Positions 1-18,757 of a DNA stretch of 18,757 bases are shown here, piece by piece; within the stretch, counting starts at the first letter, position 1; each line of letters starts with the position of its first letter. The DNA lies in contig ONMY01000053.1 of NCBI GenBank assembly GCA_900318975.1, forward strand, positions 1-18,757, given 5' to 3'. The stretch comes from an uncultured Bacillota bacterium. Its GTDB lineage: Bacteria; Bacillota_I; Bacilli_A; Izemoplasmatales; UBA1188. Made by a program: the position numbers and the translations under genes. The notes beneath the pieces were generated by a model. It was not told the DNA's origin, searched no databases, and worked only from the letters and a program-made list of their open reading frames with translations.

Positions 1-735
1 ATGTATGAATATCAAGATGATGATTCACTCATGGCTAAAGTTCAAAGAGAAAACGCAATAGAACATATAAATAAGTTTGATAGTAAGTTATTAAAACTTG
101 TCATACCAGTAATACTCCTTGCATTTATGATTTCAGCATGTGTTCTTGGAGTGTCTGCTAGTACTGTTTCAGTATTAAGCGCAACTGGTGTTATCAAGAG
201 TGGAAGACAAACCATTATTGATATTATTCCAACAGAAGATGTTTATTATTCAGTTACTTATACCGCTAAAAAAGGCGGAATAATTGAAGGCGAACTCGAA
301 CAAACTATTAAAGAAGGAGAAGATGCATCGCCAGTAATCGCTATCGCAAGCCATGGATATATTTTCGTAACTTGGTCAGATGGCGTAAGAGATCCATATA
401 GACTCGATCTAGCTGTTAATAAAACAATTGATGTCTTCGCAAGTTTCATTACTATTGATGAATATATGGAATTAATGAAGAATCCAGGTGAACCTGAAGT
501 ACCAGAAGAACCTGCAATGGGTAATATCCCAATTCCAAAAGATGAGGGTGATGGTGACCCAACAATGCAAAGATATGATGAAAATGCCCAAATAATTGAT
601 GGCGAAACATACTATGGTGAAAGCGTTTTCGATGAATATCAAGCTGATATGATCGAAACACTTGCACAAGACACTGAAATGTCTACTAGTACTAAAAAAA
701 TAATCAACGATTATTTTGATACTATTGAAAAATAA
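1..735 (+). CDS. Membrane-anchored protein with one divergent InlB B-type repeat
   Basis: A 244-residue protein, not assignable to a named family. Residues 1-31 are polar and probably cytoplasmic. Residues 33-54 form one hydrophobic membrane segment, and the rest would lie outside. Residues about 82-150 look like a divergent InlB B-repeat (Flg_new_2-like): a YTAKKGG start, a GY-F-x-W-SDG core near residues 119-128 and a closing A-x-F. A Pro/Glu/Asp-rich linker (about 160-190) leads to an amphipathic C-terminal helix ending KKIINDYFDTIEK, which could be a docking tail. It lies 17 bases upstream of the MoxR gene in the same direction, so it is probably part of that complex. The ATG falls on the first base of the window, so a ribosome site cannot be seen and the gene could begin further upstream. 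Cys47 sits in an ISAC lipobox-like setting, but the 30-residue lead makes a lipoprotein doubtful. Function unknown. Confidence 0.75.
   Translation: MYEYQDDDSLMAKVQRENAIEHINKFDSKLLKLVIPVILLAFMISACVLGVSASTVSVLSATGVIKSGRQTIIDIIPTEDVYYSVTYTAKKGGIIEGELEQTIKEGEDASPVIAIASHGYIFVTWSDGVRDPYRLDLAVNKTIDVFASFITIDEYMELMKNPGEPEVPEEPAMGNIPIPKDEGDGDPTMQRYDENAQIIDGETYYGESVFDEYQADMIETLAQDTEMSTSTKKIINDYFDTIEK
244..450 (+). repeat. Divergent InlB B-type repeat domain (single copy)
   Basis: Residues about 82-150 of the first protein. Recognised from the order: beta strand YSVTYTA, K-GG-I-EG, a Q-x-I-x-EGE turn, then GYIFVTWSDG and a final strand ending in ASF. Domains of this kind are extracellular beta-grasp-like modules. 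Two of the downstream lipoproteins carry related modules, which supports a shared surface role. Confidence 0.6.
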
Positions 736-752
736 AATAGGAAAATAAAAAT

Positions 753-1748
753 ATGATTAATGAAAAAGATATTAATGATTTTAGTCTAAAAATAAAAGAA
801 ATATATGAACAAATCAATAGAGACGTTATCGGTATAAAAGAAGTAATCGAAGGAACAGTTGTTGCGATGATTGCCGGTGGTAACGTTCTACTTGAAGGTG
901 TTCCAGGCGTTGGTAAAACACGTCTTGTTAGAACTTTAGGTAGAGTATTTGGACTTCCATTTTCAAGAATCCAATTTACTCCAGACTTAATGCCAGCTGA
1001 TGTTACAGGTACAAATATGGTTGTTAAGGATGATAGTGGTAAAACATCATTTGAATTCCAACCTGGTCCAATCTTCGCAAGTATCATCTTAGCCGATGAA
1101 ATAAACCGTGCAACACCTAAAACACAATCAGCTCTACTTGAAGCGATGCAGGAACATAAAGTTACTGTAATGGGCGTTTCAAGACCACTTCAAGAACCAT
1201 TCTTCGTTCTTGCAACCCAAAACCCAATTGAACAAGATGGTACATACCCACTACCAGAAGCGCAAATGGACCGTTTCATGTTCAAGATCTTAGTACCAAA
1301 CCCAGGCCTTGAAGACTTAATGACAATCGTCAACTTAACTCAAAAGACTATGGCAGAGGTAGCTGACACTGTTTGTAGCGGTGAAGAGCTCTTAAAGATG
1401 AGAGAAACTGCAAATAGTATCCCAGTTGCAACTGATGTATTAACATACGCAATGATTTTAGTTGCTGCAACACATCCAACTGGTGAATATGCATCAGAAA
1501 CAGCTAAAAAATACCTACGTTTAGGCGCATCTCCACGTGCTGGTCAAGCATTTATAAGTTGCGGTAAAGTAAAAGCTTTAATTAAAGGAAGATATAATGT
1601 TGCATACGAAGATATCGATGAACTTGCAACAATGATTCTTCGTCACAGAATTAAACTCAATTTCGAAGCTGTTGCAGATAGAATATCTCCTGATACAATT
1701 ATCGAAGAAATTATCAAAGAAGTAAGAGCAAAATATAAAATAAAATAA
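753..1748 (+). CDS. MoxR-family AAA+ ATPase
   Basis: A 331-residue protein of typical MoxR length with all family landmarks. Walker A GVPGVGKT lies at residues 49-56 and Walker B ending DEINR at 115-119. Sensor-1 TQNPIE is at 155-160, QMDRF (arginine-finger region) at 171-175 and the sensor-2 signature GASPRAG at 258-264. It is cytoplasmic with no membrane segment. MoxR ATPases form ATP-driven rings and are known to work with MIDAS (vWA) proteins in maturing or inserting metal centres and complexes; the target here is not known. The start is preceded by a weak TAGGAAA site about ten bases upstream. The next gene is a DUF58 protein, the standard MoxR partner, 34 bases downstream. Arginine codons are a mixture of CGT and AGA, with CGT more evident than in the following genes; this may reflect stronger conservation or expression. 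Family assignment is very secure. Confidence 0.97.
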   Translation: MINEKDINDFSLKIKEIYEQINRDVIGIKEVIEGTVVAMIAGGNVLLEGVPGVGKTRLVRTLGRVFGLPFSRIQFTPDLMPADVTGTNMVVKDDSGKTSFEFQPGPIFASIILADEINRATPKTQSALLEAMQEHKVTVMGVSRPLQEPFFVLATQNPIEQDGTYPLPEAQMDRFMFKILVPNPGLEDLMTIVNLTQKTMAEVADTVCSGEELLKMRETANSIPVATDVLTYAMILVAATHPTGEYASETAKKYLRLGASPRAGQAFISCGKVKALIKGRYNVAYEDIDELATMILRHRIKLNFEAVADRISPDTIIEEIIKEVRAKYKIK

Positions 1749-1750
1749 TA

Positions 1751-1769: not shown

Positions 1770-1782
1770 TGGAAGTGATATT

Positions 1783-2682
1783 ATGGAACTATCATATATT
1801 AATGACGCATTTTTTAGTCGTCTTGAATCTTTGTCTTTCAATTTAAAATCATATTTAAGCGGTTATTTCGGCGGAAAACATCTGGTCAAAACATTTGGCC
1901 AGACCGTCGAGTTTGCCGATTTTAGAGATTATCAGCTTGGTGATGATATTAGAAGAATCGACTGGAATTTATACAGTAGATTTGAAAAATTCTTCATTAG
2001 GCTTTTTACTGATGAAAGACAAATGAAAGTATCAATATTCCTAGATGTATCTGCATCTATGGGAAAGGATAACCCTAAAAAAGCGGCTTATGCAACTGCG
2101 TGTGCTGCAGGTATTGGTTATCTTGCAATACATAATATGGATAAAGTTTCTTTTAATATCATGAAAGAAGAAAAATCAGAAAACAAGTATGGTACAATCG
2201 TTGGTAAAAACCAATTTTTCCGTTCGATTGAAGTACTTGAAAATATCACCTTTGAAGGTGAAACCGATATCACAAAATGTATTCTAAGTTCTAATGACGA
2301 TGGAACTGCGAATGGACTTACTGTGATTATTTCCGATTTCCTAACTGATGGAAACTGGAAAAAGGCAGTTGATTACTTATTATATAAGAAAAGACAAGTT
2401 TTATTACTCCAAATATTAACACCTGAAGAACTCGAACCAACATATACTGGTAGAGTTAATTTAATCGACTCAGAATCTTTAGATATTTCAGATCCAAAGA
2501 ATATGAGACTTAGAATCAATACTGGTCTTCAAAGCGCGTACCAAATGGCTCTTGAGGAATTCAAAAAAGATATAGCTGACTACGCTAAAAAAAGAGAAGT
2601 AGATTATATCTCAATAGATACAAGCGAAGCCATTGAAAGTGTGCTTTTTAAACAATTATTAAAGGTAGGAATGATGTCATGA
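1783..2682 (+). CDS. DUF58 domain protein with intact MIDAS (vWA-like)
   Basis: A 299-residue soluble protein. The DUF58 hallmark is clear: YQLGDDIRRIDW at residues 50-61 followed by an aromatic/basic stretch. A vWA-like fold then begins with the metal-ion site FLDVSASMG (DxSxS at 88-92). Thr161 in ETD and Asp185 in ISDF are plausible second and third metal ligands. DUF58 proteins are the usual partners of MoxR ATPases, and the MIDAS site is expected to bind Mg2+ and a protein ligand. No membrane helix is evident, so it probably acts on the cytoplasmic side with MoxR and the membrane vWA proteins. Its stop overlaps the next start in ATGA (2679-2682), which favours translational coupling. Ribosome site: GAGGAG at 1764-1769, with GGAAGTGA nearer the ATG. 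Family assignment secure; client unknown. Confidence 0.95.
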   Translation: MELSYINDAFFSRLESLSFNLKSYLSGYFGGKHLVKTFGQTVEFADFRDYQLGDDIRRIDWNLYSRFEKFFIRLFTDERQMKVSIFLDVSASMGKDNPKKAAYATACAAGIGYLAIHNMDKVSFNIMKEEKSENKYGTIVGKNQFFRSIEVLENITFEGETDITKCILSSNDDGTANGLTVIISDFLTDGNWKKAVDYLLYKKRQVLLLQILTPEELEPTYTGRVNLIDSESLDISDPKNMRLRINTGLQSAYQMALEEFKKDIADYAKKREVDYISIDTSEAIESVLFKQLLKVGMMS

Positions 2683-4631
2683 CTTTAATGAACTTAATCG
2701 GTTTATTATCGCTCATAAGTCTTATTATATTACTAATTATTTATATACTTAAACCAAATTATCAACAACAATTTATTTCAAGTACTTATATTTGGAAGTT
2801 AAGTTTAAAATACAGAAAGAGAAGACTTCCAACAAGTAAACTTAGAAATATATTATTGATAATCTGCCAAGTTCTCTTATTATTAACTTTAACAGCTATT
2901 ATTGTTAGACCTGTGAATATCACAAAAGAAACAGTAGAAAATGAAGCAATAATAGTAATAGATGCATCAGCTAGTATGAGAACGCAATATGAAGATAAGA
3001 CAAGATTTGAAAGAGCAATAGATCTAGTAAAAGAAAAAGCAAATGAAACATTTGATAAAGAAGGAGCTGTAACAGTTGTCATATCTGATAACAACCCTCA
3101 TTTCTTAGTACAAAGAGGGACAATTAATTCAAAAGATGATATTCAGCATGATTTGGATAATTTAAAATCCGATTTTTATTCATGTTCCTACGGAGAAACT
3201 AGTCTTTCAGATTCAATTAGCCTTTGTCATGATATCCTAATTGACAATCCAAATGCTCATATCTATATCTATACTGATACTACAGTTTCTTATACTGATG
3301 ATACAATCGAGGTTATCAACGTTTGTACAGAAGGCGAAAACAACTTCGCAATACTCGATGCTTATGCAGAAATAGTAGATAACTATTATTCATTTGTTGT
3401 AGAAGTTGCTGGATATGGAAGAGATGAAAATGTCCTTGTTACACTTTCTGTTTATGGTGCAAATGCGACTGATGTTGACCCAGATGGTGTTAATCTAACT
3501 TTCTCTCTTGATGTTGATTTAACAAGCGACAAACCAAAAAGAGTAGTATTTATAAATGAATATCCTGAAACCTTTAATGAAGAAGAAAATACAGAATTTT
3601 ATATTATCAGTGAGCTTGAAAGAATTTTCTCATACGAATCAGCTCACGTTGAAATAGATATCGAAGATTGTTTCAACGAAGACAATTTTATAGAAATCTA
3701 TGGTGGAACAAAAGAAGACATTAAAGTCTTATATTGTTCAAATAAATCAAACAGCTTCTTTAATGGTATTATGTTTGTTTTAAGAGATGCTCTTAAGAAT
3801 AAATATCATATCGATTATACAGAGATTAAAGAAGGCGATGTTCCATATAGAGGATATGATTTCTATATCTATGAACATGAAATGATGCCTGATGTTACAC
3901 CAAATGATGGTATCGTTCTTTATGCCGATCCACAAAAAGATACAGAATCAACTGGTTTTAGAGTTTATGGATACTATGATCTTGATAAGGTATCTGTTTC
4001 CTTTACACAGGAATCTGAACATCCATTACTTGATGGAGTAGTAGTAGATAATATTACAGCATCTAGATATACTGAACTTTCACAGTTTGATCGTAACTAT
4101 GAAGTTTTAGCAACTCTAAACAATAGACCAGTTTTAATGGTTAAAAACGAAGAAAACTATAAGATAGTTGTAATGCTATTCAGTTTACACTATTCAAATT
4201 TAGCATTATTAAAAGAATTCCCAATCTTAATCAACAACATGTTTGAATATTTCCTCCCATCAACAATCGAAGGAAATTCATTCGAAGTTAATGATGAAGT
4301 AAAGGTAAATTCAAGAAGTCAAGAAATTACAATTACTGGTTATGATGAAACAATAAGGATTGATGAATTCCCAAGTACAGTTTCACTCAAACTCCCAGGA
4401 TCATACACAATCGAGCAAACAACATATTTTGGAAAGAATATCACCGAAAAGATATACGCAAAAGTTCCAAAAGATGAATCAAATATATTCCCAGTACTAG
4501 ATAGTCTTTCTAGTCCTATTTCAGCTGTTGATGAATACGATTACATCAATGACTGGTTATTCTATTTAGCTATTGCCTTATGCGCACTTGCTTTTGTTGA
4601 GTGGCTATTAAAAGGCAATGAGTCGGCGTAG
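2679..4631 (+). CDS. BatA-like membrane protein with vWA domain
   Basis: A 650-residue membrane protein. The N-terminus has the BatA layout: a first helix (about 4-24), a short basic loop, then a second helix (about 57-78) ending in the typical RP. A vWA domain follows (about 90-215) with MIDAS DASAS at 95-99, Thr174 in GETS and Asp200 in YTD. Residues about 220-330 look like a beta-rich domain. Residues about 345-530 resemble the glutamine-amidotransferase-like region found in large BatA/vWA proteins, here likely non-catalytic. Another beta domain precedes a C-terminal helix (about 626-644). The vWA part is probably outside or at the membrane face, as in Bat proteins. The start overlaps the DUF58 stop by four bases, and the TAG stop lies inside the next gene's ribosome site. 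It most likely forms a membrane complex with the next vWA protein under control of MoxR. The family is clear; the exact subfamily is less so. Confidence 0.88.
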   Translation: MTLMNLIGLLSLISLIILLIIYILKPNYQQQFISSTYIWKLSLKYRKRRLPTSKLRNILLIICQVLLLLTLTAIIVRPVNITKETVENEAIIVIDASASMRTQYEDKTRFERAIDLVKEKANETFDKEGAVTVVISDNNPHFLVQRGTINSKDDIQHDLDNLKSDFYSCSYGETSLSDSISLCHDILIDNPNAHIYIYTDTTVSYTDDTIEVINVCTEGENNFAILDAYAEIVDNYYSFVVEVAGYGRDENVLVTLSVYGANATDVDPDGVNLTFSLDVDLTSDKPKRVVFINEYPETFNEEENTEFYIISELERIFSYESAHVEIDIEDCFNEDNFIEIYGGTKEDIKVLYCSNKSNSFFNGIMFVLRDALKNKYHIDYTEIKEGDVPYRGYDFYIYEHEMMPDVTPNDGIVLYADPQKDTESTGFRVYGYYDLDKVSVSFTQESEHPLLDGVVVDNITASRYTELSQFDRNYEVLATLNNRPVLMVKNEENYKIVVMLFSLHYSNLALLKEFPILINNMFEYFLPSTIEGNSFEVNDEVKVNSRSQEITITGYDETIRIDEFPSTVSLKLPGSYTIEQTTYFGKNITEKIYAKVPKDESNIFPVLDSLSSPISAVDEYDYINDWLFYLAIALCALAFVEWLLKGNESA

Positions 4632-4638: not shown

Positions 4639-4642
4639 AGAT

Positions 4643-7519
4643 ATGTTAGGTATTTCAATGCACTTCTCTCGTCCATTATTACTATTACTCTTAATTCCAT
4701 TCTTAGCATTTACGGTTATTCCATATTTTAGACTTTCTAAGAAATATAGAAGGACAAGAAACCGTATCACATCAATGGTGCTTCATGGATTATTATCCAC
4801 TCTTGCAGTATTGCTTCTTGCTGGGTGTATCTTTGTTAGCAGCAAGAAGAACCCAGATAATGAATTAATAATTTTAGTCGATGTCTCAAATACAGAAAAC
4901 GAATCAAAAGATTCTAGAGACAAGTTTGTAAAAGATTTAATTAATCAATGTTCATTCGATAACGTAAAAGTTGGTGTTGTGACATTTGGATATGATCAGG
5001 AATACGCTATAGAACTAACTGATGAATATGATGGTTTATATGAAAAATATTTAAATGCACCACTTCCTGATACTTCTGCAACTAATATTGCAGCCGCAAT
5101 CAACTATGCAAAAGAATTATTCACTAATTATGAATCAGGAAAGATAGTAGTCGTTTCTGATGGTAAAGAAACCGATGAAAATAGTAAGACTGTCATTAAA
5201 GGTGCTGTTGCATCAGGTTTAAAGATTGATACAGTCTATGTTCCATCTATGTATGATGGCGATGAAACAGAAATAGTTAGTGTTGAATATCCTGAATACC
5301 ATATCAATAAAGGTGAAGAATTCACTCTTACCTTAAATATAAAGAGTAATTTTACACATAATGCGATTATATCATTGTATGATAATGGTATTTTAGATAC
5401 ACTTTCAGATACTCCAGTTGATATTATTGAAGGTGAACAACAAGTATTATTTAAACATACATTTGCGAACGATGGACTTCATGAATTATCATTCAAAATC
5501 AACGATCTAAAAGATGTAGTAGAAGAAAACAATGAATACATCTCTTATATGTATGTTGAATCATTCAATAAGGTTCTAATATTAGAACAAAATAATGGTG
5601 AATCAAATCTCTTAAGAAATGTCTTAACTGAAAATGATGAATTCCAAGTTGACGTGATGAACGTTAGAACTGATGCACTTCCAAAAACAGCACTTGAACT
5701 TTGTGCATATGATGAAGTGATTTTAAACAACATTGCAAATTCTGATTTAGAAGAAGGCTTCACAGAAGCATTAAATGAATATGTTTATAACTATGGAGGC
5801 GGACTCTTCACAACTGGTGGTAATGATGCAGAAGGAACTATGTCTCATTCTTATAATAGAACAGATATGGTTGGTACCCTCTATCAACAGATGCTTCCAG
5901 TTCAAGTAATTAATTATACTCCTCCAGTTGGTGTAATCTTCATCATCGATAGATCAGGCTCAATGTCTGAACTCGCAGAAGATGGTGATACACTTCTTGA
6001 ATGGGCAAAAGCGGGTACTTTCTCTGCTGCAATAAACGCTCTTACAGAAAGAGATTATGTCGGAATCATGAGTCTTGAATCTGATTATGGTATGATTCTT
6101 GAATTAACTCCAAGAACACAAGAAGCTAAGATCAGATCTGCAATCGATAGTATTGATACAGCTGATGGTAGTACAACTTTCTCAGGCGCTATAGAAAGAG
6201 CGGGACAAATACTACGTTCTGCTAAAAACGTCGATAAAAAACATATCGTAATAGTATCTGATGGTTGGGTAACTGAATCAAGCAATGAAACATATGAAAA
6301 ACTTGCAAAACAGTATTATGAAACTGATGGTATCACAATTTCTGTTGTCGGTGTAAGTATGTCTACACCAATTGATGCAGTAAATTATAAAGATGAAACT
6401 AATGTTGATAATATTCCAGCTGTTGGCGCTTATTACATGATGTTAAGGCTAACAATGCTTGGCCATGGTAGACTTCATGCAATTCCTACTAACGAATCAG
6501 CAAGAATCGTCCCAGAAATGAGAGAAGACTTAAAAGCTCCTGATATTAAAGAAGTAAGTGATGAACCATTCTATCCAATAATTGTAAATAATACTGCCTC
6601 AGTATTTAATGGTGTTGAAAGATTAAACGATGAAGAACACGGTAACACCATGACTATGCAAATAGAAGGTTTCTATGGAACTAAGATACGTGACGGTGCA
6701 ACTCTCCTTTTAACAGGCGATTATAATGTTCCACTCTATGCTCAGTGGAAGTATGGAAATGGTATGGTTGGTAGTTTCATGTCTGATGTTTATGGACTAT
6801 ATACCGGTGACTTCATGAGCGATCCTAGTGGCACAACCTTCTTAAAGAACGTTATTAAGAATTTAACTCCAACATCAAATATTAGAGATAACGATATAAA
6901 ACTCACACTCTATGAAGAAAACTATTCTAACCAATTAAGTATTCTAACTGGATTTAATGAAGGTGAATACCTAGAAGGTAAGATTATATATGAGGACACT
7001 GAAACAGGTACAGTTGAAGTATCGATGAATAATCTCGTTGAAGATGCAACAAAAGAATTAATTAGGAATTCAAGTGTCTTCGTTTTAACTCCAATGACGG
7101 AAACTAATAACTATTCAAGATGTAAGTTTATAATTAGAAAGCCTGGTACATATACTATTGAAATCAATAAATATAATGAAGCAGGTGAACTCGTTGGTTC
7201 TAATACCTTAAATAAGACACTTGCATATTCTAAAGAATATGAAGCGTTCGAAGAAGAAGATTATAATCCAAAAGAATTACTATCAATAATATCTAAGAAT
7301 GGTAATGGTATCCTAGTTGATGATTTAACTGATGCTCATAGTATAATCAATTCCTTTGAAACAATAATCTATAAAGAATTTGACCCAAGATACTTATTCT
7401 CAATTATTATGATTGTATTATTCTTAGCTGATGTTGCAGTAAGAAAGTTCAAATTCAAATGGCCTCACGAAATCATTAAGAATTATCGTGAAAAGAAACT
7501 TGAAGGTGACAAGAAATGA
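4643..7519 (+). CDS. Large membrane protein with two vWA domains and an amidotransferase-like domain
   Basis: A 958-residue protein. Two N-terminal helices (about 8-29 and 42-66) give a BatA-like anchor, and a third helix (about 917-932) precedes a basic cytoplasmic tail. The first vWA domain (about 74-200) has an altered metal site: DVSNT at 80-84 instead of DxSxS, with SDG at 172-174. A linker beta domain (about 205-305) and a glutamine-amidotransferase-like region (about 308-425, including YGGGLFTTGG at 384-393) follow. The second vWA domain (about 430-600) has a canonical DRSGS at 436-440, Thr511/512 and SDG at 539-541. Residues 697-715 (PLYAQW then GNGMVGSFMSD) match a segment common in large bacterial vWA/amidotransferase-like membrane proteins. 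The second vWA may be the active ligand binder and the first structural or differently tuned (inference). The ATGA overlap with the LRR lipoprotein gene ties it to the surface proteins downstream. Confidence 0.87.
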   Translation: MLGISMHFSRPLLLLLLIPFLAFTVIPYFRLSKKYRRTRNRITSMVLHGLLSTLAVLLLAGCIFVSSKKNPDNELIILVDVSNTENESKDSRDKFVKDLINQCSFDNVKVGVVTFGYDQEYAIELTDEYDGLYEKYLNAPLPDTSATNIAAAINYAKELFTNYESGKIVVVSDGKETDENSKTVIKGAVASGLKIDTVYVPSMYDGDETEIVSVEYPEYHINKGEEFTLTLNIKSNFTHNAIISLYDNGILDTLSDTPVDIIEGEQQVLFKHTFANDGLHELSFKINDLKDVVEENNEYISYMYVESFNKVLILEQNNGESNLLRNVLTENDEFQVDVMNVRTDALPKTALELCAYDEVILNNIANSDLEEGFTEALNEYVYNYGGGLFTTGGNDAEGTMSHSYNRTDMVGTLYQQMLPVQVINYTPPVGVIFIIDRSGSMSELAEDGDTLLEWAKAGTFSAAINALTERDYVGIMSLESDYGMILELTPRTQEAKIRSAIDSIDTADGSTTFSGAIERAGQILRSAKNVDKKHIVIVSDGWVTESSNETYEKLAKQYYETDGITISVVGVSMSTPIDAVNYKDETNVDNIPAVGAYYMMLRLTMLGHGRLHAIPTNESARIVPEMREDLKAPDIKEVSDEPFYPIIVNNTASVFNGVERLNDEEHGNTMTMQIEGFYGTKIRDGATLLLTGDYNVPLYAQWKYGNGMVGSFMSDVYGLYTGDFMSDPSGTTFLKNVIKNLTPTSNIRDNDIKLTLYEENYSNQLSILTGFNEGEYLEGKIIYEDTETGTVEVSMNNLVEDATKELIRNSSVFVLTPMTETNNYSRCKFIIRKPGTYTIEINKYNEAGELVGSNTLNKTLAYSKEYEAFEEEDYNPKELLSIISKNGNGILVDDLTDAHSIINSFETIIYKEFDPRYLFSIIMIVLFLADVAVRKFKFKWPHEIIKNYREKKLEGDKK

Positions 7520-10308: not shown

Positions 10309-10327
10309 TTAGGAGGATGGTAGTCTT

Positions 10328-13300
10328 ATGAAGAATATTAAAAATACAGTATTTCTATTTATTTTAATAATTTCACTAGCCCTTATTCTAACCGGATGTA
10401 AAGGTAAAAAAGAGCTTGTTTTTGAGACAAATGGTGGAAACGAAATAGAAACTGTTCAAGTTGATTCAAAAGAAGAATATACTCTTCCAGTACCAACTCG
10501 TGAGGGATATCAATTCATTGGATGGTATTTATCAGATGATTTTAGTGGCGAAAGCATTCTTACTATTAAAATTGATAAGAAGACAACAGTTTATGCAAAG
10601 TGGGAAGCACTTCTTAAGATTACTCTAGATCCTGCTGGTGGTACTTTATCAAAAACTACTGTCTATGGTAAAAATGGTGATACTGTTTTAGACCTCGTAA
10701 AAGATTCTATCCCAACTAAAGATGGAGAAGTATTTGGTGCTTGGTTTAATGGAAACTTAGAATTAAGCGCAAACGCAAAGCTCACAAAAGATATGACTCT
10801 TACTGCTAAATACAAAGTAGAATACACAGTAAATGTCTATAAAGAAAAACTCACTCATGATGGTTATGATCTTGAAACAGTTAAACTATATGATTATATT
10901 GGAAAAACTGTTTCATATGAACTCGATAGTGATGAAGGTTTCACTGAAATCGAAAAAGAAGATACTAAAGATGAAATCACATTATCAAATAACAAATCAA
11001 CAAACATACTCACACTCTATTTCGATAGAGAATACTATACTGTAACACTTAGAAGTAATTATCCAAACTCATCAAAAGCTGAAGAGACAAAGACAATAAA
11101 CCTTTATTATGGTGAAGAAGTAGATCTTCCTGAAACAGGATTTAGTATTGATGGATATTACCTTTTAGGTTTTAGCACAGCGGCAAATGGCGAAATCATC
11201 TATGATGCTCATGAAATAGATAATCTTCCAGTTAATAAAGATCCTGATGAAATCGTTAAAGATAAATTAAGCGCATCAAGAACTACATCTTTATATGCGA
11301 TTTGGAATAAGGGATATAAAGATATGTTTGGCGGAACCGATTATATCTTTGTTGCTAAAGATGAAAAGACCGCATATCTTGAAAGAGAAGGTGTATATTT
11401 CATCGGTGAATACTTTAAGAGTGATAAATCATTTATCTTCTATAACGATAAAGAAAACCTTGAAGGTATGATCTATGATGATGGAACATATGCATATTAT
11501 AATGTTTCAAGAGATGAATATTCTGCAGTATTATATACTGTTGGTAGCGGTCTTGATGAAGATATTAAAATCCTCTTTGACCCATACAATGGAATCACAT
11601 ATTATGATGGCTATCAAGATGCTGATAAGAGAGAATCAAAAGGTACATATACAATCGATGAAAACAATTTCTACCATGTAACATTCACAGAAGGCTTAAA
11701 AGCTGGTGAAACAATGATAATAATTGTTGGTAGAGTTACAGCTGACTATGTCACAACTGATGCCTTCCAGCTTAGAAAAGAAAATGAATATGAGATGGGA
11801 GAACTCGTAAGATTTGCAGTCATAAATTCAGAGATTACTTACTACCTTTATGCATATCAAATTGAACTTTCAGGTTTTGGTACTCTAACATTCAATAATG
11901 GTGAATCAATAGAGACTTATTACTATAGCTATGATGAAGAAAAAGATCTATATACTGTAAATGGTCAAAATGGTTCTAAGTTTGGAACTATCAAGATAAT
12001 GGAATATTTAGATAAGAAAGGCTATATGTTCTATGATGAAAGCTTAGATCAAACATTCACACATGCTGATGGTTCAACACTTAAACTTGATGGTATATCA
12101 AACGCAATCTATACAAAAGAAGACACAAGTGTATCTGGCACTTATTCAATAAAAGAATCTGTATTTGGTGGATATATTGTTACATTTAAGAATAATGGAA
12201 AAGAATACACATTCTTAACATCATCAAAGACAGAAGAATCAATCATTGATACAAATACTAGTGGTGAGGCAGAAACCATTACAACTTATTCATTCACAGT
12301 TAAACCTAATGGATATAATGAATATTACTATAAAGATGAAGATTCAATCTATTATGCACCACTCGTTGTAATAAATGACAATGAAGAAGGAAAAGCTAAT
12401 GTTTATGGCTTTACACCTGATAGAACATTTGAACTTGTGCTAGAGGGAACATATGTATTTGATGAAGATACAAATCTTTATGTTTTCACAACAACTAGTG
12501 TCCACAACAAGAAAGTCTTAACATCTCCAGTAGATATTAAAAAGTATAAATCATTTATCTTCGCAGTTGATTCATCTATTACACAGTATTCAATCAACTA
12601 CTGGTACGAATCAACTACAGATGATGGCACTACGAATTATTCTGTTGAATATAGAAATACTGATAATTCTAAACTTCTCCTAGTTAATGGTGTTGCAATA
12701 CTTTCTAAAGATGGATATGTAGTTACTGGTACATATAGTATTAGAAATGGTCTTATTGTCATTTCTAATCAAAATGGATCAGTCTATGTTGAATTAAATA
12801 TTCTAAATAACACATTTATCGTTTTAGATCATGCTCCATATAATGCTTATGTTGTACTAAATGATGGTTCTTATTCAACAAAAGAACATATGGAATTTGA
12901 TGGAAGAGGAAACGCAACATATGTTTATACAACTGTTGAAGATGATGTAGACGTTCTACATGAGATTAATGGAACTATCACAAAGACAAGTGATACTAAT
13001 AGAAACGGTAATGAAATCTATGAATTTAGATCATCTGAAAAGACTATTAGATATCTACTTATTCATAAAAATGAAGGAAGTTTCGTTTATCCATATAATG
13101 TAAATTACAATGGTTCATATGCCGGTGAAGGTATCCTATTCTTAGATGGATATCTAGATTATGTAAGTTATACAAATACCGATGGTGATGAATTAATCGG
13201 AAGTTATGTAATAGAGGATAACAATCTAATCAAAGCCGATTTTGATGGAGTAATTAGATATTTTGATCTAAGTTCTCGTTCATTTACTATTAAAGGAATT

Positions 13301-15250
13301 GAATATGGTTCATATGTAGTTGTTGATAACCAGGGTACAAATGATCTTTATCTTGATCTTGATGGATATGGAAAAGGAATATTATATACTCTTTCAGGTG
13401 AAACTAAGACTATCATAGATAGTAATGCAACATATACAAAAGAAAATGATAAATATCTAGTTTCATATAAAGAAAGTGCAGTTGATTACACTCTAATTGG
13501 CTATACTGGAACATACAAGAATAATGGTATAGTAGAAGATGCATTCTTAATTGAAAATATCGATTCAATCCATACATATATCAATAATAAAGACTGGTCT
13601 ATCTTAAAGCTTGATTCTAAGGGTTATGCAATAAGAGTTGATAATAAAGGCATAAAAGATGAAGGTATATACACAATCATCACTGATAACCTTCTTTACT
13701 ATGAAAATAACGATGGAACATATGCAAATATCTATAAATACAATAATACAAATAACACAATCACTGAATCAAAATATGTTCCAAGAGGATATTATACTAA
13801 AGAATTAAAATCATTACTCTTCACTCAATATGGTTTTGCAGTATTCAATTTCAACACAAAATATTACTACAATATCACAGATGATGGCGTAATCATTTAT
13901 CGTCAAGATGTAGATAATCCAAACGCTAATAAATATGGATATGTCGAAGAGAACTTCGGTGCATTTGACAATGAAAAAGAATACAAAGGCGATATCTATT
14001 ATCAAAATGATGGATTCGCAATCAATTTCACAAGAAAAGAAGAGACAAAAGACCTATATCCAGTTCTAATTAGTAGCACTACAGGAGAAAGAGCTCCAAT
14101 TGAGAAATTATCATTCAGTCCAACTGGAAATGATATATTTAAATCTCAAGGCACAGTAGATGTTGGTCCATTCCAAGGCATGCCTTGTACAGTTGTTAGA
14201 GAATATGTTGATGATCACTATGAAATGTATGTTCAAGTAAACTATTATCGTTTCTATATCACAGTTAACTTTAGTGGTAAGAATCCTGATGGTAGTTCTA
14301 ATAGTACATACGAAGTTACTGGAATGACTTGCGAGAGATCATTCGAATCATATAGATACTTCGACAATTACTATATGTATTATATGTTCTACGGTCAATC
14401 ATTTGTAAGCAACTACGAAAACAATATCGGAAGACTCACATTTAGACAACTCTTTAATGAAACAGGTGAAATGACTGATGACTATGTAATCGTCGATTTC
14501 ATGGAAGAAACTAACGCAAAAGATTTAGAGGGAGTACTCCTAAATAGTGAACATGCACTATATGAATATGAAGAAGAAGGAAATGCTTATACTATTACAA
14601 TAGAAGGTACTGATGGTTATACATATAAGCTATACGTTCTATCAAGAATTCATCCAGCATTCAACACTCAAGCATACATCCTCTATGCTGCAGTAAGATG
14701 TGAAAAGATTACATCAGATGATTATACAGTTGATGTTGAAAGAATAGTCTATAGTGATTATAATTTCCCACTTGGTGCATATTTCAGTGTAAAGATGTCT
14801 AAGGGAGAAGATGAGCTTTCAAGCACTGAATCATTTGAAATCGATAAGATCTTACATTATGTTGCAAGAGAATATGATGATAATGAAAAGATTACTAAGA
14901 CAACTTACTATAAATTAAATATTGTATTAAAAGATTCAGAATCTTTAGCTGACACAGTTGTACCAGTAGATTCAATTACTGTTACAAAACTTGAGGCTGT
15001 AACTTACTACAGTGAAGATTCAAAATCATTCATCGATATCCTAGATTCTAAGATTGTATTCATTTCAATAGATGGTTCAAAATATTTAGTTAGTGAATCA
15101 ACTTATGATAGTAATACTAAAGAATATAGAATAGTATTATCATCACTAAAAGAATACACAGTTAAAATCGATGATAAAGGTGTAATGACACTCACAGAAA
15201 TAACTGAAGAAATACCTGAAGAAGCTGAAAACCCAGAAAATAATGAATAA
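10328..15250 (+). CDS. Giant InlB-repeat lipoprotein with tyrosine-rich beta-repeat body
   Basis: A 1640-residue lipoprotein. Signal peptide with lipobox LTGC, Cys24 as the lipid anchor. Residues 29-93, 95-162 and 237-326 are InlB B-type (Flg_new-like) repeats, with cores such as GYQFIGWY at 60-67 and closing strands YAKW, TAKY and YAIW. Residues about 166-234 resemble a MucBP-like unit ending LYFDRE. Residues about 330-1150 contain a degenerate repeat with hallmarks LxLDGxG and GTYxI. Residues about 1150-1610 are Tyr-, Asp- and Glu-rich with no repeat I can define. The end is acidic (EITEEIPEEAENPENNE), with no sortase motif or C-terminal helix. It lies 19 bases after the LRR gene with AGGAGG at 10311-10316. 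It is probably a long beta-rich stalk or binding protein held to the membrane by its N-terminus. The function is unknown; secretion and lipid anchoring are well supported. Confidence 0.88.
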   Translation: MKNIKNTVFLFILIISLALILTGCKGKKELVFETNGGNEIETVQVDSKEEYTLPVPTREGYQFIGWYLSDDFSGESILTIKIDKKTTVYAKWEALLKITLDPAGGTLSKTTVYGKNGDTVLDLVKDSIPTKDGEVFGAWFNGNLELSANAKLTKDMTLTAKYKVEYTVNVYKEKLTHDGYDLETVKLYDYIGKTVSYELDSDEGFTEIEKEDTKDEITLSNNKSTNILTLYFDREYYTVTLRSNYPNSSKAEETKTINLYYGEEVDLPETGFSIDGYYLLGFSTAANGEIIYDAHEIDNLPVNKDPDEIVKDKLSASRTTSLYAIWNKGYKDMFGGTDYIFVAKDEKTAYLEREGVYFIGEYFKSDKSFIFYNDKENLEGMIYDDGTYAYYNVSRDEYSAVLYTVGSGLDEDIKILFDPYNGITYYDGYQDADKRESKGTYTIDENNFYHVTFTEGLKAGETMIIIVGRVTADYVTTDAFQLRKENEYEMGELVRFAVINSEITYYLYAYQIELSGFGTLTFNNGESIETYYYSYDEEKDLYTVNGQNGSKFGTIKIMEYLDKKGYMFYDESLDQTFTHADGSTLKLDGISNAIYTKEDTSVSGTYSIKESVFGGYIVTFKNNGKEYTFLTSSKTEESIIDTNTSGEAETITTYSFTVKPNGYNEYYYKDEDSIYYAPLVVINDNEEGKANVYGFTPDRTFELVLEGTYVFDEDTNLYVFTTTSVHNKKVLTSPVDIKKYKSFIFAVDSSITQYSINYWYESTTDDGTTNYSVEYRNTDNSKLLLVNGVAILSKDGYVVTGTYSIRNGLIVISNQNGSVYVELNILNNTFIVLDHAPYNAYVVLNDGSYSTKEHMEFDGRGNATYVYTTVEDDVDVLHEINGTITKTSDTNRNGNEIYEFRSSEKTIRYLLIHKNEGSFVYPYNVNYNGSYAGEGILFLDGYLDYVSYTNTDGDELIGSYVIEDNNLIKADFDGVIRYFDLSSRSFTIKGIEYGSYVVVDNQGTNDLYLDLDGYGKGILYTLSGETKTIIDSNATYTKENDKYLVSYKESAVDYTLIGYTGTYKNNGIVEDAFLIENIDSIHTYINNKDWSILKLDSKGYAIRVDNKGIKDEGIYTIITDNLLYYENNDGTYANIYKYNNTNNTITESKYVPRGYYTKELKSLLFTQYGFAVFNFNTKYYYNITDDGVIIYRQDVDNPNANKYGYVEENFGAFDNEKEYKGDIYYQNDGFAINFTRKEETKDLYPVLISSTTGERAPIEKLSFSPTGNDIFKSQGTVDVGPFQGMPCTVVREYVDDHYEMYVQVNYYRFYITVNFSGKNPDGSSNSTYEVTGMTCERSFESYRYFDNYYMYYMFYGQSFVSNYENNIGRLTFRQLFNETGEMTDDYVIVDFMEETNAKDLEGVLLNSEHALYEYEEEGNAYTITIEGTDGYTYKLYVLSRIHPAFNTQAYILYAAVRCEKITSDDYTVDVERIVYSDYNFPLGAYFSVKMSKGEDELSSTESFEIDKILHYVAREYDDNEKITKTTYYKLNIVLKDSESLADTVVPVDSITVTKLEAVTYYSEDSKSFIDILDSKIVFISIDGSKYLVSESTYDSNTKEYRIVLSSLKEYTVKIDDKGVMTLTEITEEIPEEAENPENNE
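10412..11305 (+). repeat. N-terminal InlB B-type and MucBP-like repeat block
   Basis: Four consecutive modules directly after the lipid anchor: InlB-type (residues 29-93), InlB-type (95-162), MucBP-like (166-234) and InlB-type with an insertion (237-326). The second keeps FGAWF as its core and the fourth has LLGFST. This order, InlB-type repeats with an interposed MucBP-like unit, is common in low-G+C surface proteins. Confidence 0.75.
11870..13744 (+). repeat. Degenerate 45-60 residue beta-type repeats in the giant lipoprotein
   Basis: Aligning by eye gives at least seven related units, at residues about 515-556, 575-631, 780-826, 850-912, 933-981, 1006-1057 and 1091-1139. The shared pattern is a strand ending LxLDGxGxAxY, a turn, G-[TS]-Y-x-[IV], then one or two strands rich in Tyr/Phe around a Gly-containing turn. 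Good examples are STLKLDG with SGTYSI, LFLDGYL with IGSYVI, and LDLDGYG with NATYTK. Extra GTY signatures at residues 439-443 and 707-709 may be decayed copies. I do not recognise a named domain. Confidence 0.6.
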
Positions 15251-15256: not shown

Positions 15257-15264
15257 CGCTATTT

Positions 15265-18200
15265 ATGAATTTATTTAAAAAAATCGCAATCCTAATATGT
15301 TCATTATTGATTGCGAATTTCACAGTTGTTCCGAATAAAGGGATTAATAAAGAGACAATAAATGAGAATGAAACTATCAGTAATTCTCTTGTTTCTCTGT
15401 CGTCTTCTAGCACAATTCGAAATATTAGTGATTTAAAGAATCTATTTGAGCACAATATCGAATTATTCTTAGACTCAGACGTTGTATCAAAGCTTCCTGA
15501 AGATTTATCTGATGAAGAGATTATCTCAGTTATCATATCAATGGATACAGATTCTTTATATGATAAATACTTATCAAGTGGATCAACAGCCAAGTTTAGT
15601 AGCTATTTAGAGACTAAATACGCTAAAAAGGAACTCGATAACATAAATGAAAAGATTTATTCTGAACTTAGAAAATTAGATGGTTCAAGTGTTATCTATA
15701 CTCTTGGTGAAAGATATGATACTTTACTTACTGGTTTTGAAGTCGAAATAAAAGCTAAAGATTATTATGCTTTAGAAGAACTATTCCCAACAAGTACACT
15801 CATAATTGGTGATACATACGAAAGATTAGAAACTGACGTTGTAACAAACTATGTAAATGTCTATGATACTGGTATATTCGATAGTTCAGCTATTGAATAT
15901 CAAGGTGATGGTGTAGTAGTAGCTGTACTTGATACAGGTCTTGATTATACTCACTCAGCATTCTCAGTAGATAATTTTACATCAACTAATGAAGCATTTA
16001 CTCTTCCATACGTTCAAGAAAGAATTAAAGATACAAAGGCAGCTACCTTTACTCAAGGACTAAATGGTGAAGATGTATATGTTTCAAGGAAGATTCCATA
16101 TGCCTATGACTATGCAGATAAAGACCCTGATGTTTCACCAATAAATTCAGAACACGGTACTCACGTTGCCGGTATTATTGCTGGACGTGATAGTGAAATC
16201 ACAGGCGTTGCACCAAATGCACAGCTTGCAATCTTTAAAGTATTTAGCGACCATCAAGATGGCGCTAAATCTTCTTGGATTATGGCCGCTCTTGAGGACT
16301 GTGTTGTCCTTGGAGTCGATGTAATCAATATGTCTCTTGGTACATCTTGTGGTTTTTCAAGAGAAGTAGATAAAGAAAACATAAATAAAATATATGATAA
16401 GATAAGCGATGCAGGAATTGAAATGATTGCATCAGCTGGTAACCAGTACAATTCCACAATGGGAAGTACTAAAAATGGTAATAATGGTTTAACATCAAAT
16501 CCAGATTATGGAACAGTTGGTTCTCCATCAACATATGAAGCAACTCTCTCAGTTGCATCTGTTGAAGGAAAGAAAACATCTTATCTAAAACACAAAAACA
16601 ATATCATCTATTTTAACGAAGCATTCACAAATAGTGCTGATCTTACAAAGAGTTTCGTTGATGATATCTTAAATACATTAGGTGATAATGTAGATTCTCA
16701 TACATTTGAATATGTAGTAATTCCTGGAATTGGTAGATCATCAGATTATCCAGATGAAGATTCCTTCTATGAAGGAAAAATCGTTCTTGTAAAAAGAGGT
16801 ATTACTACATTTGAAGATAAGGTTAGAATTGCCCTAAAAGAAAAAGGTGCAGCAGGAATTATCATCTATAACAATGTTTCAGGTTCAATTTCCATGTCAG
16901 TTGGTGCAAATATCGGTGCTGTATGTTCGCTTTCACAAGATGATGGTGAATATCTAGTATCACAGGTAGATCCAACTACAGGTATTGGTAAAATTGAAAT
17001 AAGTAGATCTTTAGTTGCTGGTCCATTTATGTCTGATTTCTCATCATGGGGTCCAACATCTGATTTAAAGATTAAACCAGAAATAACCGCTCATGGTGGC
17101 CAAATCTATTCAGCAATCCCAGGCCAATCTTATGATAGACTATCTGGTACATCAATGGCTGCACCAAACCTTTCTGGTGTAACTGCACTTGTATGTCAAT
17201 ATGTAAAATATAGTGGTATTTTTGGTGATAATCTAACAACTAAAGAAATCACTAATATCGTTAATCAATTAATGATGTCAACTTCTGATATCATCTATGA
17301 TAAGAATGGTCTTCCATCATTTGTAAGAAAACAAGGTTCTGGTCTTGTAAGCCTTGATAAATCAGTCCAAGCTGAAGCATATATTTCAACATATGATAAA
17401 GATGGAAATAAGATGTCTAAAGCTAAACTTGAACTCGGTGATGATAAGAATAGAAGTGGTGTTTATACAATGACATTTGATATAAACAACATCACATCAT
17501 CAAAAGTAACTTATGATTTATCATGTATCGCAGTAACTGAAGGCGTAAATGTAACTTATACAAGTCACAGTGATACAACAGTAACTCAAAAAGCTTATGA
17601 ACTAACTGGTTCAAAAATAACAATCGACAATGTGTCAAGTGGTACTGTAAATGGAAATAGTATAGAAGTTAATCCAAATTCTACATTAAAGGTTACAGTA
17701 ACTTTAACACTATCAGATACTGATAAAGAATATCTAAATACTTCATTCAAAAATGGTATGTATGTTGAAGGCTATTTAATGCTTAAAGCAAAAGGTACAA
17801 CTAAGACTAACCTAAACGTTCCATACCTTGCCTTCTATGGTGATTGGAGTGAGGCTCCAATCTTCGATGAAGAATATTATGATACTCATAAAGATGAAAT
17901 CAATAAAGGCCTTGATGATGAAGATAAGCTAATGGCAGATGCTTATCCAACAAGAGTAATCGGTGGACTTTATAGCGATTACATCTCAACACTTGGTACA
18001 TATTATTTCATCCAAGATCCAAAAGCGACTCAAATCGCTGCATCTAAAGAACATATCGCAGTTTCTAACCAAGATAAGGGTGAAGAAAACGGCTCAACTG
18101 TCTCAAGCATTAGGTCAGTTAGCGCGGGACTACTTAGAAATGCTAAAGAGATCTATATTGAAATTGTTGAAGAATCGACAGGAAATGTAATCTATACAGA

Positions 18201-18757
18201 TAAGGTTACAAACCAACATAAATCATATTCATATGGTTCATCAATTGGCCCATCTTCAATCGATATTAAATATAGTATCTTAGAACACAACCTCAAAAAC
18301 AACACCCGTTATACTTGTACACTCACTGCATATTTAGATTATGAGGCAAATGAGAATCAAAAGAATTCAAGAAACACATTTACCTTCCCATTCTATGTTG
18401 ACTTTGAAGCTCCAATAATCACTGATGTAACATTTAGAAGTGAATATGATAAGACATCTAAAGAAACTCACCTCTATGCAGATCTAAAAGTTTATGATAA
18501 TCACTATGCAATGGGTATCCAATTCGGTCAAATAATTGAGGCAGAAGAAGATTCAGAATATACATTCACTCTCCAATCATTTGGAAAATATGTTACTCCT
18601 GTATATTCTAGTTTCAATTCAACCTCAATTGTTAGTGTAGAACTCACAAACTATATATCAAGTCTTAAGAATTCATGTAGTGTTAAATATAACGCTGATG
18701 GTTCAACTGATGTTCTACATAATACAAATACATTTGTTGCGACAGTTTACGACTATG
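15265..18757 (+). CDS. Secreted subtilisin-family (S8) protease, lactocepin-like, 3' end outside window
   Basis: At least 1164 residues, with no stop before the window ends. A Sec signal peptide (about 1-20, MNLFKKIAILIC...) is followed by a likely pro-region (about 30-200). The catalytic triad is complete: Asp223 in VLDTG, His297 in HGTHVAG and Ser630 in GTSMAAP, with oxyanion-hole Asn393 in SAGN. A protease-associated (PA) domain is inserted at about 470-570 (IVLVKRG, then KGAAGIIIYNN), as in lactocepin and C5a-peptidase type enzymes. From about residue 730 a fibronectin-like domain follows, then further beta domains. It probably cleaves extracellular proteins, possibly the neighbouring surface lipoproteins or host substrates; this is inference. 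The Cys near the signal core lacks a small residue before it, so it is not a clear lipoprotein. The anchoring mode would be at the unseen C-terminus. Family assignment very secure; specificity unknown. Confidence 0.95.
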   Translation, partial: MNLFKKIAILICSLLIANFTVVPNKGINKETINENETISNSLVSLSSSSTIRNISDLKNLFEHNIELFLDSDVVSKLPEDLSDEEIISVIISMDTDSLYDKYLSSGSTAKFSSYLETKYAKKELDNINEKIYSELRKLDGSSVIYTLGERYDTLLTGFEVEIKAKDYYALEELFPTSTLIIGDTYERLETDVVTNYVNVYDTGIFDSSAIEYQGDGVVVAVLDTGLDYTHSAFSVDNFTSTNEAFTLPYVQERIKDTKAATFTQGLNGEDVYVSRKIPYAYDYADKDPDVSPINSEHGTHVAGIIAGRDSEITGVAPNAQLAIFKVFSDHQDGAKSSWIMAALEDCVVLGVDVINMSLGTSCGFSREVDKENINKIYDKISDAGIEMIASAGNQYNSTMGSTKNGNNGLTSNPDYGTVGSPSTYEATLSVASVEGKKTSYLKHKNNIIYFNEAFTNSADLTKSFVDDILNTLGDNVDSHTFEYVVIPGIGRSSDYPDEDSFYEGKIVLVKRGITTFEDKVRIALKEKGAAGIIIYNNVSGSISMSVGANIGAVCSLSQDDGEYLVSQVDPTTGIGKIEISRSLVAGPFMSDFSSWGPTSDLKIKPEITAHGGQIYSAIPGQSYDRLSGTSMAAPNLSGVTALVCQYVKYSGIFGDNLTTKEITNIVNQLMMSTSDIIYDKNGLPSFVRKQGSGLVSLDKSVQAEAYISTYDKDGNKMSKAKLELGDDKNRSGVYTMTFDINNITSSKVTYDLSCIAVTEGVNVTYTSHSDTTVTQKAYELTGSKITIDNVSSGTVNGNSIEVNPNSTLKVTVTLTLSDTDKEYLNTSFKNGMYVEGYLMLKAKGTTKTNLNVPYLAFYGDWSEAPIFDEEYYDTHKDEINKGLDDEDKLMADAYPTRVIGGLYSDYISTLGTYYFIQDPKATQIAASKEHIAVSNQDKGEENGSTVSSIRSVSAGLLRNAKEIYIEIVEESTGNVIYTDKVTNQHKSYSYGSSIGPSSIDIKYSILEHNLKNNTRYTCTLTAYLDYEANENQKNSRNTFTFPFYVDFEAPIITDVTFRSEYDKTSKETHLYADLKVYDNHYAMGIQFGQIIEAEEDSEYTFTLQSFGKYVTPVYSSFNSTSIVSVELTNYISSLKNSCSVKYNADGSTDVLHNTNTFVATVYDY

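What the first reader, a model, noticed from the sequence alone, without database searches (positions are those of the whole stretch)
1..18757. One gap-free gene train joins a MoxR/DUF58/vWA membrane machine to giant surface lipoproteins and a subtilase
Eight same-strand genes have gaps of at most about 34 bases, two ATGA overlaps and no visible terminator. The first five form a MoxR/Bat-like set; the last three are exported proteins (LRR lipoprotein, giant InlB-repeat lipoprotein, S8 protease). MoxR ATPases are known to act with MIDAS proteins as assembly or maturation machines, but the clients are usually unidentified. Here the candidate clients would be encoded in the same transcript. Proposed model: MoxR and DUF58 inside the cell drive the two membrane vWA proteins, which bind, fold or release the large lipoproteins, with the subtilase trimming them or foreign proteins.
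Basis: partly seen in the sequence, partly recalled or inferred. Interest (0 to 1): 0.75.

Follow-up and report, generated by a model that had tools for sequence, protein, structure and literature searches.

The report
MoxR machine with partner surface lipoproteins
A gut bacterium's membrane motor genes (MoxR, DUF58 and two adhesion-domain proteins) are inherited together with genes for very large surface lipoproteins in many related gut bacteria, which suggests what this poorly understood motor may act on; the protease beside it belongs to a separate peptide-import gene set.

Summary
The gene train is real, but both end genes are cut by the contig ends. Relatives show a giant LRR lipoprotein before it and a peptide importer (Opp) after the protease. 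Strong matches to giant lipoprotein g7 occur only beside the unit. In 14 neighbourhoods of distant relatives the core persists with other lipoprotein families: 43 of 98 non-core genes are lipoproteins, 15 of 256 in control regions. So the lipoproteins are probably interchangeable partners or clients of one core machine. The protease is separate: next to the unit in 7 of 28 genomes, yet followed by importer genes in 18 of 20. It still co-occurs with the unit (10 of 10 carriers, 18 of 141 others). A MoxR/DUF58 operon with an FN3 surface protein is known in bifidobacteria. Verdict: new variant of a known kind; the client mechanism is inferred, not shown.

The parts
1..735 (+). g1, cut at its 5' end: membrane protein, three helices in the intact relative, with a DUF4175-like segment read as cytoplasmic, one InlB-like domain read as outside and a C-terminal helical hairpin
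   Evidence: at E up to 1, 10 of 40 relatives hit PF13779 DUF4175 (best 8.7e-6) and 35 of 40 an InlB repeat, other membrane families scoring as well in single members; AlphaFold model of the L009 copy, mean pLDDT 82
753..1748 (+). MoxR AAA+ ATPase
   Evidence: AAA_3 1.6e-61; Walker A and B intact in 54 of 54 aligned copies; PDB 2r44 3e-73
1783..2682 (+). DUF58 protein, read as cytoplasmic, MIDAS motif
   Evidence: PF01882 3.5e-31; D-x-S-x-[ST] in 62 of 62 aligned copies
2679..4631 (+). BatA-type membrane protein, one vWA domain read as outside, conserved basic loop read as inside
   Evidence: PF07584 (at its cut-off) and PF13519; loop mean pairwise identity 0.70 against 0.36 outside
4643..7519 (+). 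g5, double-vWA membrane protein: vWA1, GATase-like domain, vWA2, C-terminal membrane helix
   Evidence: profile matches BatB 3ibs, 4jdu and 2gk3/3soz
4862..5242 (+). vWA1 of g5 with MIDAS
   Evidence: D-x-S-x-[ST] in 77 of 78; T in 77 of 78; D in 78 of 78
5564..5842 (+). glutamine-amidotransferase-like domain of g5 (approximate limits; fold name of 2gk3/3soz recalled)
   Evidence: PF07090 listed for a number of homologues
5930..6382 (+). vWA2 of g5 with MIDAS
   Evidence: motif, T and D each in 78 of 78
7439..7480 (+). short tail of g5 after the last membrane helix, near-invariant in this subtype
   Evidence: mean pairwise identity 0.91 against 0.40 outside; exact nine-residue core in 77 of 97 g5 proteins, a looser pattern in 87 of 97
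7516..10308 (+). g6, lipoprotein: FN3-like domain, BspA-type LRR array, C-terminal InlB-like repeat
   Evidence: lipobox cysteine position invariant in the 40-row alignment; LRR_5 40 of 40, InlB 35 of 40, fn3 7 of 40 at E up to 0.01
10328..15250 (+). g7, 1640-aa lipoprotein: InlB repeats then a long all-beta body
   Evidence: AlphaFold of 986 residues of the body, mean pLDDT 89.6, pTM 0.62, nearly all strands
15265..18756 (+). g8, cut at its 3' end: giant S8 protease (S8, PA, fn3_5; LRR array and terminal membrane helix in the intact relative); head gene of a separate peptide-import module
   Evidence: motifs around the catalytic D, H and S start at residues 223, 297 and 628; Opp genes after it in relatives

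Best explanation
This is a five-gene membrane-spanning AAA+/vWA machine (g1, MoxR, DUF58, BatA, double-vWA) encoded together with the large surface lipoproteins it serves. Inside the cell the MoxR hexamer works with the DUF58 vWA protein. They act through conserved cytoplasmic elements of the three membrane proteins: the g1 helical segment, the basic loops of BatA and g5, and the g5 tail. ATP-driven rearrangement is passed through the membrane to three outside vWA domains, whose metal sites hold a carboxylate of a partner. The partners are the co-encoded lipoproteins: g6 and the giant upstream LRR protein as near-constant partners in this subtype, and g7 or an Ig-domain protein as the variable one. 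The machine assembles them into a surface complex or releases them in working form. The protease and Opp importer next door are a second module that may use the same surface for feeding on proteins. Shown: gene content, order, co-inheritance, MIDAS and Walker motifs, conserved segments. Inferred: topology, direct contact, ATP-driven remodelling and the direction of action.
For: Order kept in 79 loci found with g5 alone, testable loci only: BatA 75 of 75, DUF58 63 of 66, MoxR 58 of 58, g1 51 of 51, upstream LRR protein 45 of 47, g6 78 of 78; g7 44 of 71. Of the 27 without g7, 13 carry a Big_3 Ig-domain lipoprotein relative in the same slot. Strong g7 (over 600 bits) in 8 of 151 genomes, all among the 10 with strong g5 and beside it, and in 3 of 61 relatives, exactly those with g5 and g6. 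Six type B cores are followed directly by a different lipoprotein of about 475 aa, five through a 4-base overlap. In 14 distant neighbourhoods 43 of 98 non-core genes are lipoproteins against 15 of 256 in control regions. The g5 tail, the BatA and g5 loops and the g1 segment are conserved above the outside parts. Both g5 MIDAS sites are intact. NorQD shows a MoxR ATPase working through a vWA partner to remodel a target (PMC13036017, passages); Borrelia BB0173 is a three-helix vWA protein with the vWA domain in the periplasm (PMC5700661, abstract and passages).
Against: No interaction, expression or transport evidence exists. Cores without a large lipoprotein directly after them occur: L087 and L148, while L152 and L153 have a lipoprotein after the core only on the opposite strand. 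Fourteen of 71 loci show neither g7 nor the Big_3 protein after g6, two of them (L030, L038) with little sequence left. A g7-like protein of 175 bits over nearly the whole profile exists in G220, which has no g5 match. BatA lacks the MIDAS pattern in 16 of 71 copies. Some inside-facing stretches are not conserved (g1 N-terminus 0.36, g5 tail end 0.27, BatA tail 0.30) and membrane helices are nearly as conserved as the loops. In genomes with several units, g5 neighbours matched their own g6 better than the sibling's in 8 of 12 comparisons and equally in 4, modest pairing evidence. Block inheritance could reflect shared transfer or regulation. How a cytoplasmic ATPase reaches outside proteins is unexplained.
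Confidence: 0.5

Rival explanations
1. The lipoproteins are not clients but permanent parts of the complex: an adhesive or sensory surface apparatus in which LRR, FN3 and InlB domains bind host or food material and the vWA/MoxR core switches grip or passes a signal inward.
For: LRR, InlB and vWA domains are common binding modules (family knowledge; domains); g6 is constant in this subtype (78 of 78); distances of g6 track those of BatA and g5 (r 0.80 and 0.74) more than MoxR or DUF58 (0.50, 0.60).
Against: Whole lipoprotein families change around the same core, which suits clients better than fixed parts. The correlations may reflect rate and range rather than contact, and no gene outside the unit was compared.
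Confidence: 0.27
2. Protein-foraging reading: unit, giant S8 protease and Opp importer form one surface system that captures, cuts and imports outside protein, with MoxR powering capture or unfolding.
For: S8 of 390 bits or more in 10 of 10 strong-g5 genomes and 18 of 141 others, four of those 18 carrying a diverged g5 (Fisher 1e-8; the 390-bit line was set after seeing the list, the weakest carrier scoring 396). S8 in 27 of 28 carrier genomes; in relatives a strong S8 only in the three genomes with g5 and g6. S8 on the g5 contig about 15 kb away in G397, G503 and G526, one genus. Opp genes directly upstream of g1 in L161.
Against: Adjacent in only 7 of 28. S8-Opp occurs without the unit. Of 12 distant carriers 7 lack a giant S8, and the two core-only relatives G007 and G017 lack it too. 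Shared ancestry of the sampled genomes is not controlled.
Confidence: 0.15
3. Ordinary Bat-type stress operon; lipoproteins merely co-expressed neighbours with no functional tie.
For: A Bat operon is reported to act in stress tolerance (PMC11834572, abstract and passages); some control stretches are also rich in lipoproteins (L174, L177).
Against: g6 at 78 of 78, lipoprotein enrichment over same-genome controls, and strong g7 only with the unit are more than neighbour noise.
Confidence: 0.08

Closest known systems
PFNA operon of bifidobacteria (pkb2, fn3, MoxR aaa-atp, duf58, tgm)
   Same: MoxR of the MRP subfamily and DUF58 encoded with a large FN3 surface protein; its authors suggest MoxR is possibly involved in folding FN3 (PMC8430577, abstract and passages)
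   Different: Here two vWA membrane proteins and g1 are present and no kinase or transglutaminase in the window; partners are LRR, InlB and Ig lipoproteins
Bat (Bacteroides aerotolerance) operon
   Same: MoxR, DUF58 and membrane vWA proteins (PMC11834572, passages; PMC5700661, passages)
   Different: No TPR protein among the eight here; adds g1, a double-vWA/GAT protein and giant lipoproteins
NorQ/NorD and RavA/ViaA
   Same: MoxR ATPase with vWA partner acting on a client (PMC13036017, passages; RavA papers seen only in a listing with abstract starts)
   Different: Clients there are respiratory enzymes; that the vWA partner is not an outside membrane-anchored domain is recalled
Lactic cell-envelope proteinase (PrtP/lactocepin) with Opp
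   Same: g8: S8, PA, fn3_5 surface protease followed by an oligopeptide importer in relatives; the PrtP comparison is recalled, its papers seen only in a listing
   Different: LRR array and terminal membrane helix; no LPxTG in 8 of 8 tails checked
MoxR-vWA ternary conflict systems, beta-propeller class
   Same: MoxR plus vWA logic (PMC7159879, passages); the bpMoxR model also hits at 36 bits
   Different: No propeller protein recognised by Pfam; AAA_3 scores 206 bits

Membership tests
MoxR ATPase (MRP-type gene neighbourhood) | AAA_3 domain with lid, Walker A and B | tested here: met
MoxR ATPase (MRP-type gene neighbourhood) | Neighbouring DUF58 and vWA genes | tested here: met
   MoxR before DUF58 in 58 of 58 and DUF58 before BatA in 63 of 66 testable loci
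MoxR ATPase (MRP-type gene neighbourhood) | Position in a MoxR subfamily tree | not tested
   no subfamily tree was built
Bat operon | BatA-type membrane vWA protein | tested here: met
   PF07584 25.9 bits, exactly at cut-off
Bat operon | TPR protein in the operon | tested here: not met
   no TPR hit at E up to 0.01 among the eight window proteins; flanking genes of relatives were not scanned for TPR
PFNA operon | Ser/Thr kinase and transglutaminase genes | tested here: not met
   no such hit among the eight window proteins
MoxR-vWA beta-propeller ternary system | Beta-propeller third component | tested here: inconclusive
   no propeller Pfam hit; the g7 body is all-beta with no clear PDB match
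Cell-envelope proteinase with Opp | S8 with PA and fn3_5 domains | tested here: met
Cell-envelope proteinase with Opp | Oligopeptide importer nearby | tested here: met
   G003 and G005 and 18 of 20 more distant relatives; not visible in the window itself, which ends inside g8
Cell-envelope proteinase with Opp | Sortase (LPxTG) anchor | tested here: not met
   0 of 8 S8 tails of relatives; the window's own tail is cut off

The most novel reading that the evidence does not exclude
A MoxR-powered, membrane-spanning surface machine of gut Firmicutes that loads or works giant LRR/InlB lipoproteins to seize proteins outside the cell and feeds them to a giant surface protease and peptide importer: a Gram-positive counterpart, for protein, of the surface-lipoprotein uptake systems known for glycans.
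Probability: 0.18. Interest if true: 0.85.

Novelty: new variant of a known kind. Interest (0 to 1): 0.6.

Why it matters
The clients of membrane-type MoxR/DUF58/vWA operons are largely unidentified (family knowledge). Here a conserved core is tied by descent to specific large surface lipoproteins, near-constant in one subtype and different in others, which turns 'what does MoxR act on' into a pull-down and deletion experiment. The near-invariant g5 tail gives a concrete handle for how the inside motor could grip the outside domains. If the link to the protease and importer holds, it would also describe how many uncultured gut bacteria feed on protein.

Tried and rejected
Subtilase as part of the unit: rejected from adjacency (7 of 28 genomes; the 28 were my choice out of 79 loci) and its own Opp module (18 of 20; 20 genomes chosen from those with S8). 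Of the other two, L126 ends after the start of the binding protein and L138 shows no Opp.

Distance correlation as proof of contact: dropped, because fast genes share range and no gene from outside the unit was used as a control. Lipobox regex: it misses true cases (66 of 78 g6 called, several because of upstream start calls; 76 of 88 first-slot genes with a stricter version), so lipoprotein counts are lower bounds in units and controls alike. The first enrichment count (44 of 97) had taken one g1 gene for a lipoprotein and subtracted core genes by rote; one search recounts it as 43 of 98, controls unchanged at 15 of 256 (39 of 90 without L162, a near duplicate of L155). The unit regions are whole stretches of up to 20 kb, both strands, from 12 genomes; the 16 controls are hand-picked stretches from 11 of the same genomes. 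Fisher 4e-16 and Mann-Whitney 3e-4 are indicative only, since genes and genomes are not independent. The g7 count was 48 of 71 with any hit and is 44 of 71 after dropping L038, L059, L071 and L072 (under 100 bits or far away).

Dropped before counts: L015 from the g6 count (contig ends), L049 from alignments and tree (short g5), L009, L071, L072, L086 and L026 from the g7 fold alignment; loci L001-L006 (short pieces) from the per-locus counts.
Full report
What is there. The window is a complete contig of 18,757 bases in an unnamed 1.3-Mb genome of 295 contigs. Eight plus-strand genes follow one another with gaps of 17, 34, -4, 11, -4, 19 and 14 bases; no plus-strand terminator-like site lies in a junction. 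Pfam gives an InlB-type repeat in gene 1, MoxR AAA_3, DUF58, BatA plus vWA, two vWA domains, an LRR_5 array, InlB repeats, and S8 with PA and fn3_5. The end genes are incomplete: gene 1 is 337 aa in the close relative L009 and the protease 2446 aa in G003. In G003 and G005 the train starts with a giant LRR lipoprotein (InlB repeats in the G003 copy). After the protease come a protein of about 510-540 aa, a large lipoprotein and Opp-like permeases; related genes in L125 and L134 are confirmed by Pfam as SBP_bac_5, permeases and ATPase.

Conservation test. With the double-vWA protein g5 alone as bait, 79 loci were fetched from named genome contigs, the best 80 of 123 confirmed stretches, so a sample. 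Most are labelled Clostridia or similar, many from ruminant or deer gut, chicken or 'Lapin' (read as rabbit) samples; one is labelled Anaeroplasma. Counting only loci with enough sequence, BatA precedes g5 in 75 of 75, DUF58 precedes BatA in 63 of 66 (exceptions L019, L076, L084), MoxR precedes DUF58 in 58 of 58, g1 precedes MoxR in 51 of 51, an LRR protein precedes g1 in 45 of 47 (exceptions L022, with 771 bases to look at, and L077), and the g6 lipoprotein follows g5 in 78 of 78. DUF58 and BatA overlap by four bases in 54 of 63. g7 follows g6 in 44 of 71. Of the other 27, 13 have a Big_3 Ig-domain lipoprotein relative there: the 12 of alignment A2 plus L051. In 14 neither was found; L030 and L038 have little sequence left.

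Profiles across genomes. In 61 relatives of the window's genome, g5 occurs in 5 and strong MoxR in the same 5. A strong giant S8 is in the same 3, with only weak hits to shorter proteases elsewhere. In 151 genomes of the order of G063, a carrier chosen as centre, g5 over 600 bits is in 10 and g7 over 600 bits in 8, all 8 among the 10 and beside g5. Weaker g7-like proteins (100-204 bits) exist elsewhere too, one of them spanning nearly the whole profile in G220, which has no g5 match, so the family is wider than the unit. In a g5 tree the window's copy, L007, L008 and L009 form one clade (support 1.0) inside clades of 24 and 43 tips (0.90, 0.986) whose other members are Clostridia-type records, while L086/L087 from the window's own order lie outside these clades. 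This fits horizontal arrival of the unit, as does its presence in 3 of 7 genomes of the genus.

Beyond this subtype. Six 'type B' units in Clostridia-type genomes (L142-L145, L149, L150) keep MoxR, DUF58, BatA and g5, with g1 recognised in L144, L145, L149 and L150. All six carry a lipoprotein of about 470-525 aa directly after g5 (L145 by eye, the regex missing it), five through a 4-base overlap, and several a giant lipoprotein next. Two first-slot proteins and one giant scanned have no Pfam hit. L146 is a g6 + Big_3 unit on the contig of L051, L147 has an LRR lipoprotein 710 bases on, and L148 has none. Twelve neighbourhoods in 10 of these were read: the core is recognisable in all, with g1 moved between DUF58 and BatA in L152, and g1 beyond the contig end and BatA split in L156. 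Lipoproteins of many kinds lie around it, on either strand. With L086 and L087 added, 43 of 98 non-core genes carry a lipobox against 15 of 256 in 16 control stretches; of 400 aa or more, 25 against 6. L087 is a real counter-case: a core followed only by small lipoproteins.

Anatomy and mechanism. g5 contains two vWA domains like BatB and BatA-type structures and, between them, a domain like 2gk3/3soz, which I take as glutamine-amidotransferase-like (PF07090 in homologues). MIDAS patterns are intact in vWA1 in 77 of 78, vWA2 78 of 78, DUF58 62 of 62, but BatA only 55 of 71. From hydrophobic stretches and positive loops I infer that the three membrane-protein vWA domains face outwards, as found by experiment for Borrelia BB0173 (PMC5700661, passages). 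Several segments then facing inwards stand out: g5 tail 0.91 mean pairwise identity against 0.40 outside, g5 loop 0.66, BatA loop 0.70 against 0.36, g1 segment 0.52 against 0.34. Other inside stretches do not (g1 N-terminus 0.36, g5 tail end 0.27, BatA tail 0.30), and membrane helices range from 0.28 to 0.65. The g5 tail motif is exact in 77 of 97 g5 proteins; a looser version is found in 87 of 97. g1 is predicted as three membrane helices, a helical segment with a weak DUF4175 match (10 of 40 members at E up to 1), an InlB-like domain and a C-terminal hairpin. The natural reading, by analogy with NorQ/NorD (PMC13036017, passages), is that MoxR drives DUF58, which moves the membrane proteins through these elements, and that the outside MIDAS sites act on co-encoded lipoproteins. 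No step after the conservation is shown here.

The protease. Homologues of the giant S8 protease are in 27 of 28 carrier genomes but next to the unit in 7. Of 20 stretches after the protease, 18 show at least two of the binding protein, OppB, OppC and OppD on the same strand: 6 of 7 adjacent cases and 12 of 13 non-adjacent ones. It is therefore the head of a protein-to-peptide import module. Still, S8 of 390 bits or more is in 10 of 10 strong-g5 genomes and 18 of 141 others, four of those 18 with a diverged g5 (Fisher 1e-8; threshold set after seeing the list). It is on the g5 contig about 15 kb away in G397, G503 and G526, three genomes of one genus, and Opp genes lie just upstream of g1 in L161. 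Seven of 12 distant carriers have no such protease. A functional tie is plausible, not established.

What is known. Six paper searches were made, five on MoxR operons and one on envelope proteinases with oligopeptide transport. MoxR with DUF58 gave nine papers; MoxR with BspA and leucine-rich repeat gave none. The closest published case is the PFNA operon of bifidobacteria, where MoxR, DUF58 and a large FN3 surface protein are linked and MoxR is said to be possibly involved in folding FN3 (PMC8430577, passages). So the idea of a surface-protein client of MoxR is in print. The lipoprotein-rich surroundings of a MoxR/DUF58/BatA/double-vWA core were not found in these searches, which cover only an open-access library and of which only listings and passages were seen.

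Noticed in passing
L009:15689-20623 (G003:C6:28203-33140): The g7 gene of this close relative is split by in-frame stops (two reported), either a decayed gene or an assembly error.
   Followed up: no
L019, L076, L084: Units in which DUF58 is missing before BatA (MoxR too in L019 and L076); in L019 a MoxR start appears after g7 at the contig end.
   Followed up: partly
L086:12380-14332: The lipoprotein after a core in the window's own order carries a CotH kinase domain with three InlB repeats.
   Followed up: partly
L055:16319-22414: In place of g7 stands a 2031-aa LRR protein ending in an LPATG-like motif, a different way of anchoring a surface protein; its genome was the only one of 28 without an S8 match.
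   Followed up: no
L066:12842-15601: A g6 relative whose N-terminus reads as an uncleaved membrane anchor without a lipobox.
   Followed up: no
L057, L064, L084; G143: Some genomes carry three or four copies of the unit or of g5; the three copies in one MAG differ at about 60 percent of g5 and g6 residues. Mixed assemblies are not excluded.
   Followed up: partly
window 1751-1766: A small palindrome in the MoxR-DUF58 gap, scored as a minus-strand terminator-like site.
   Followed up: no
G003:C14:56952-57842 and G005:C11:17706-18623: A second, diverged MoxR (40-41 percent identity) in two genomes of the window's genus, away from the unit.
   Followed up: no
L152:5994-7106: A core in which the g1 gene sits between DUF58 and BatA instead of before MoxR.
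   Followed up: no
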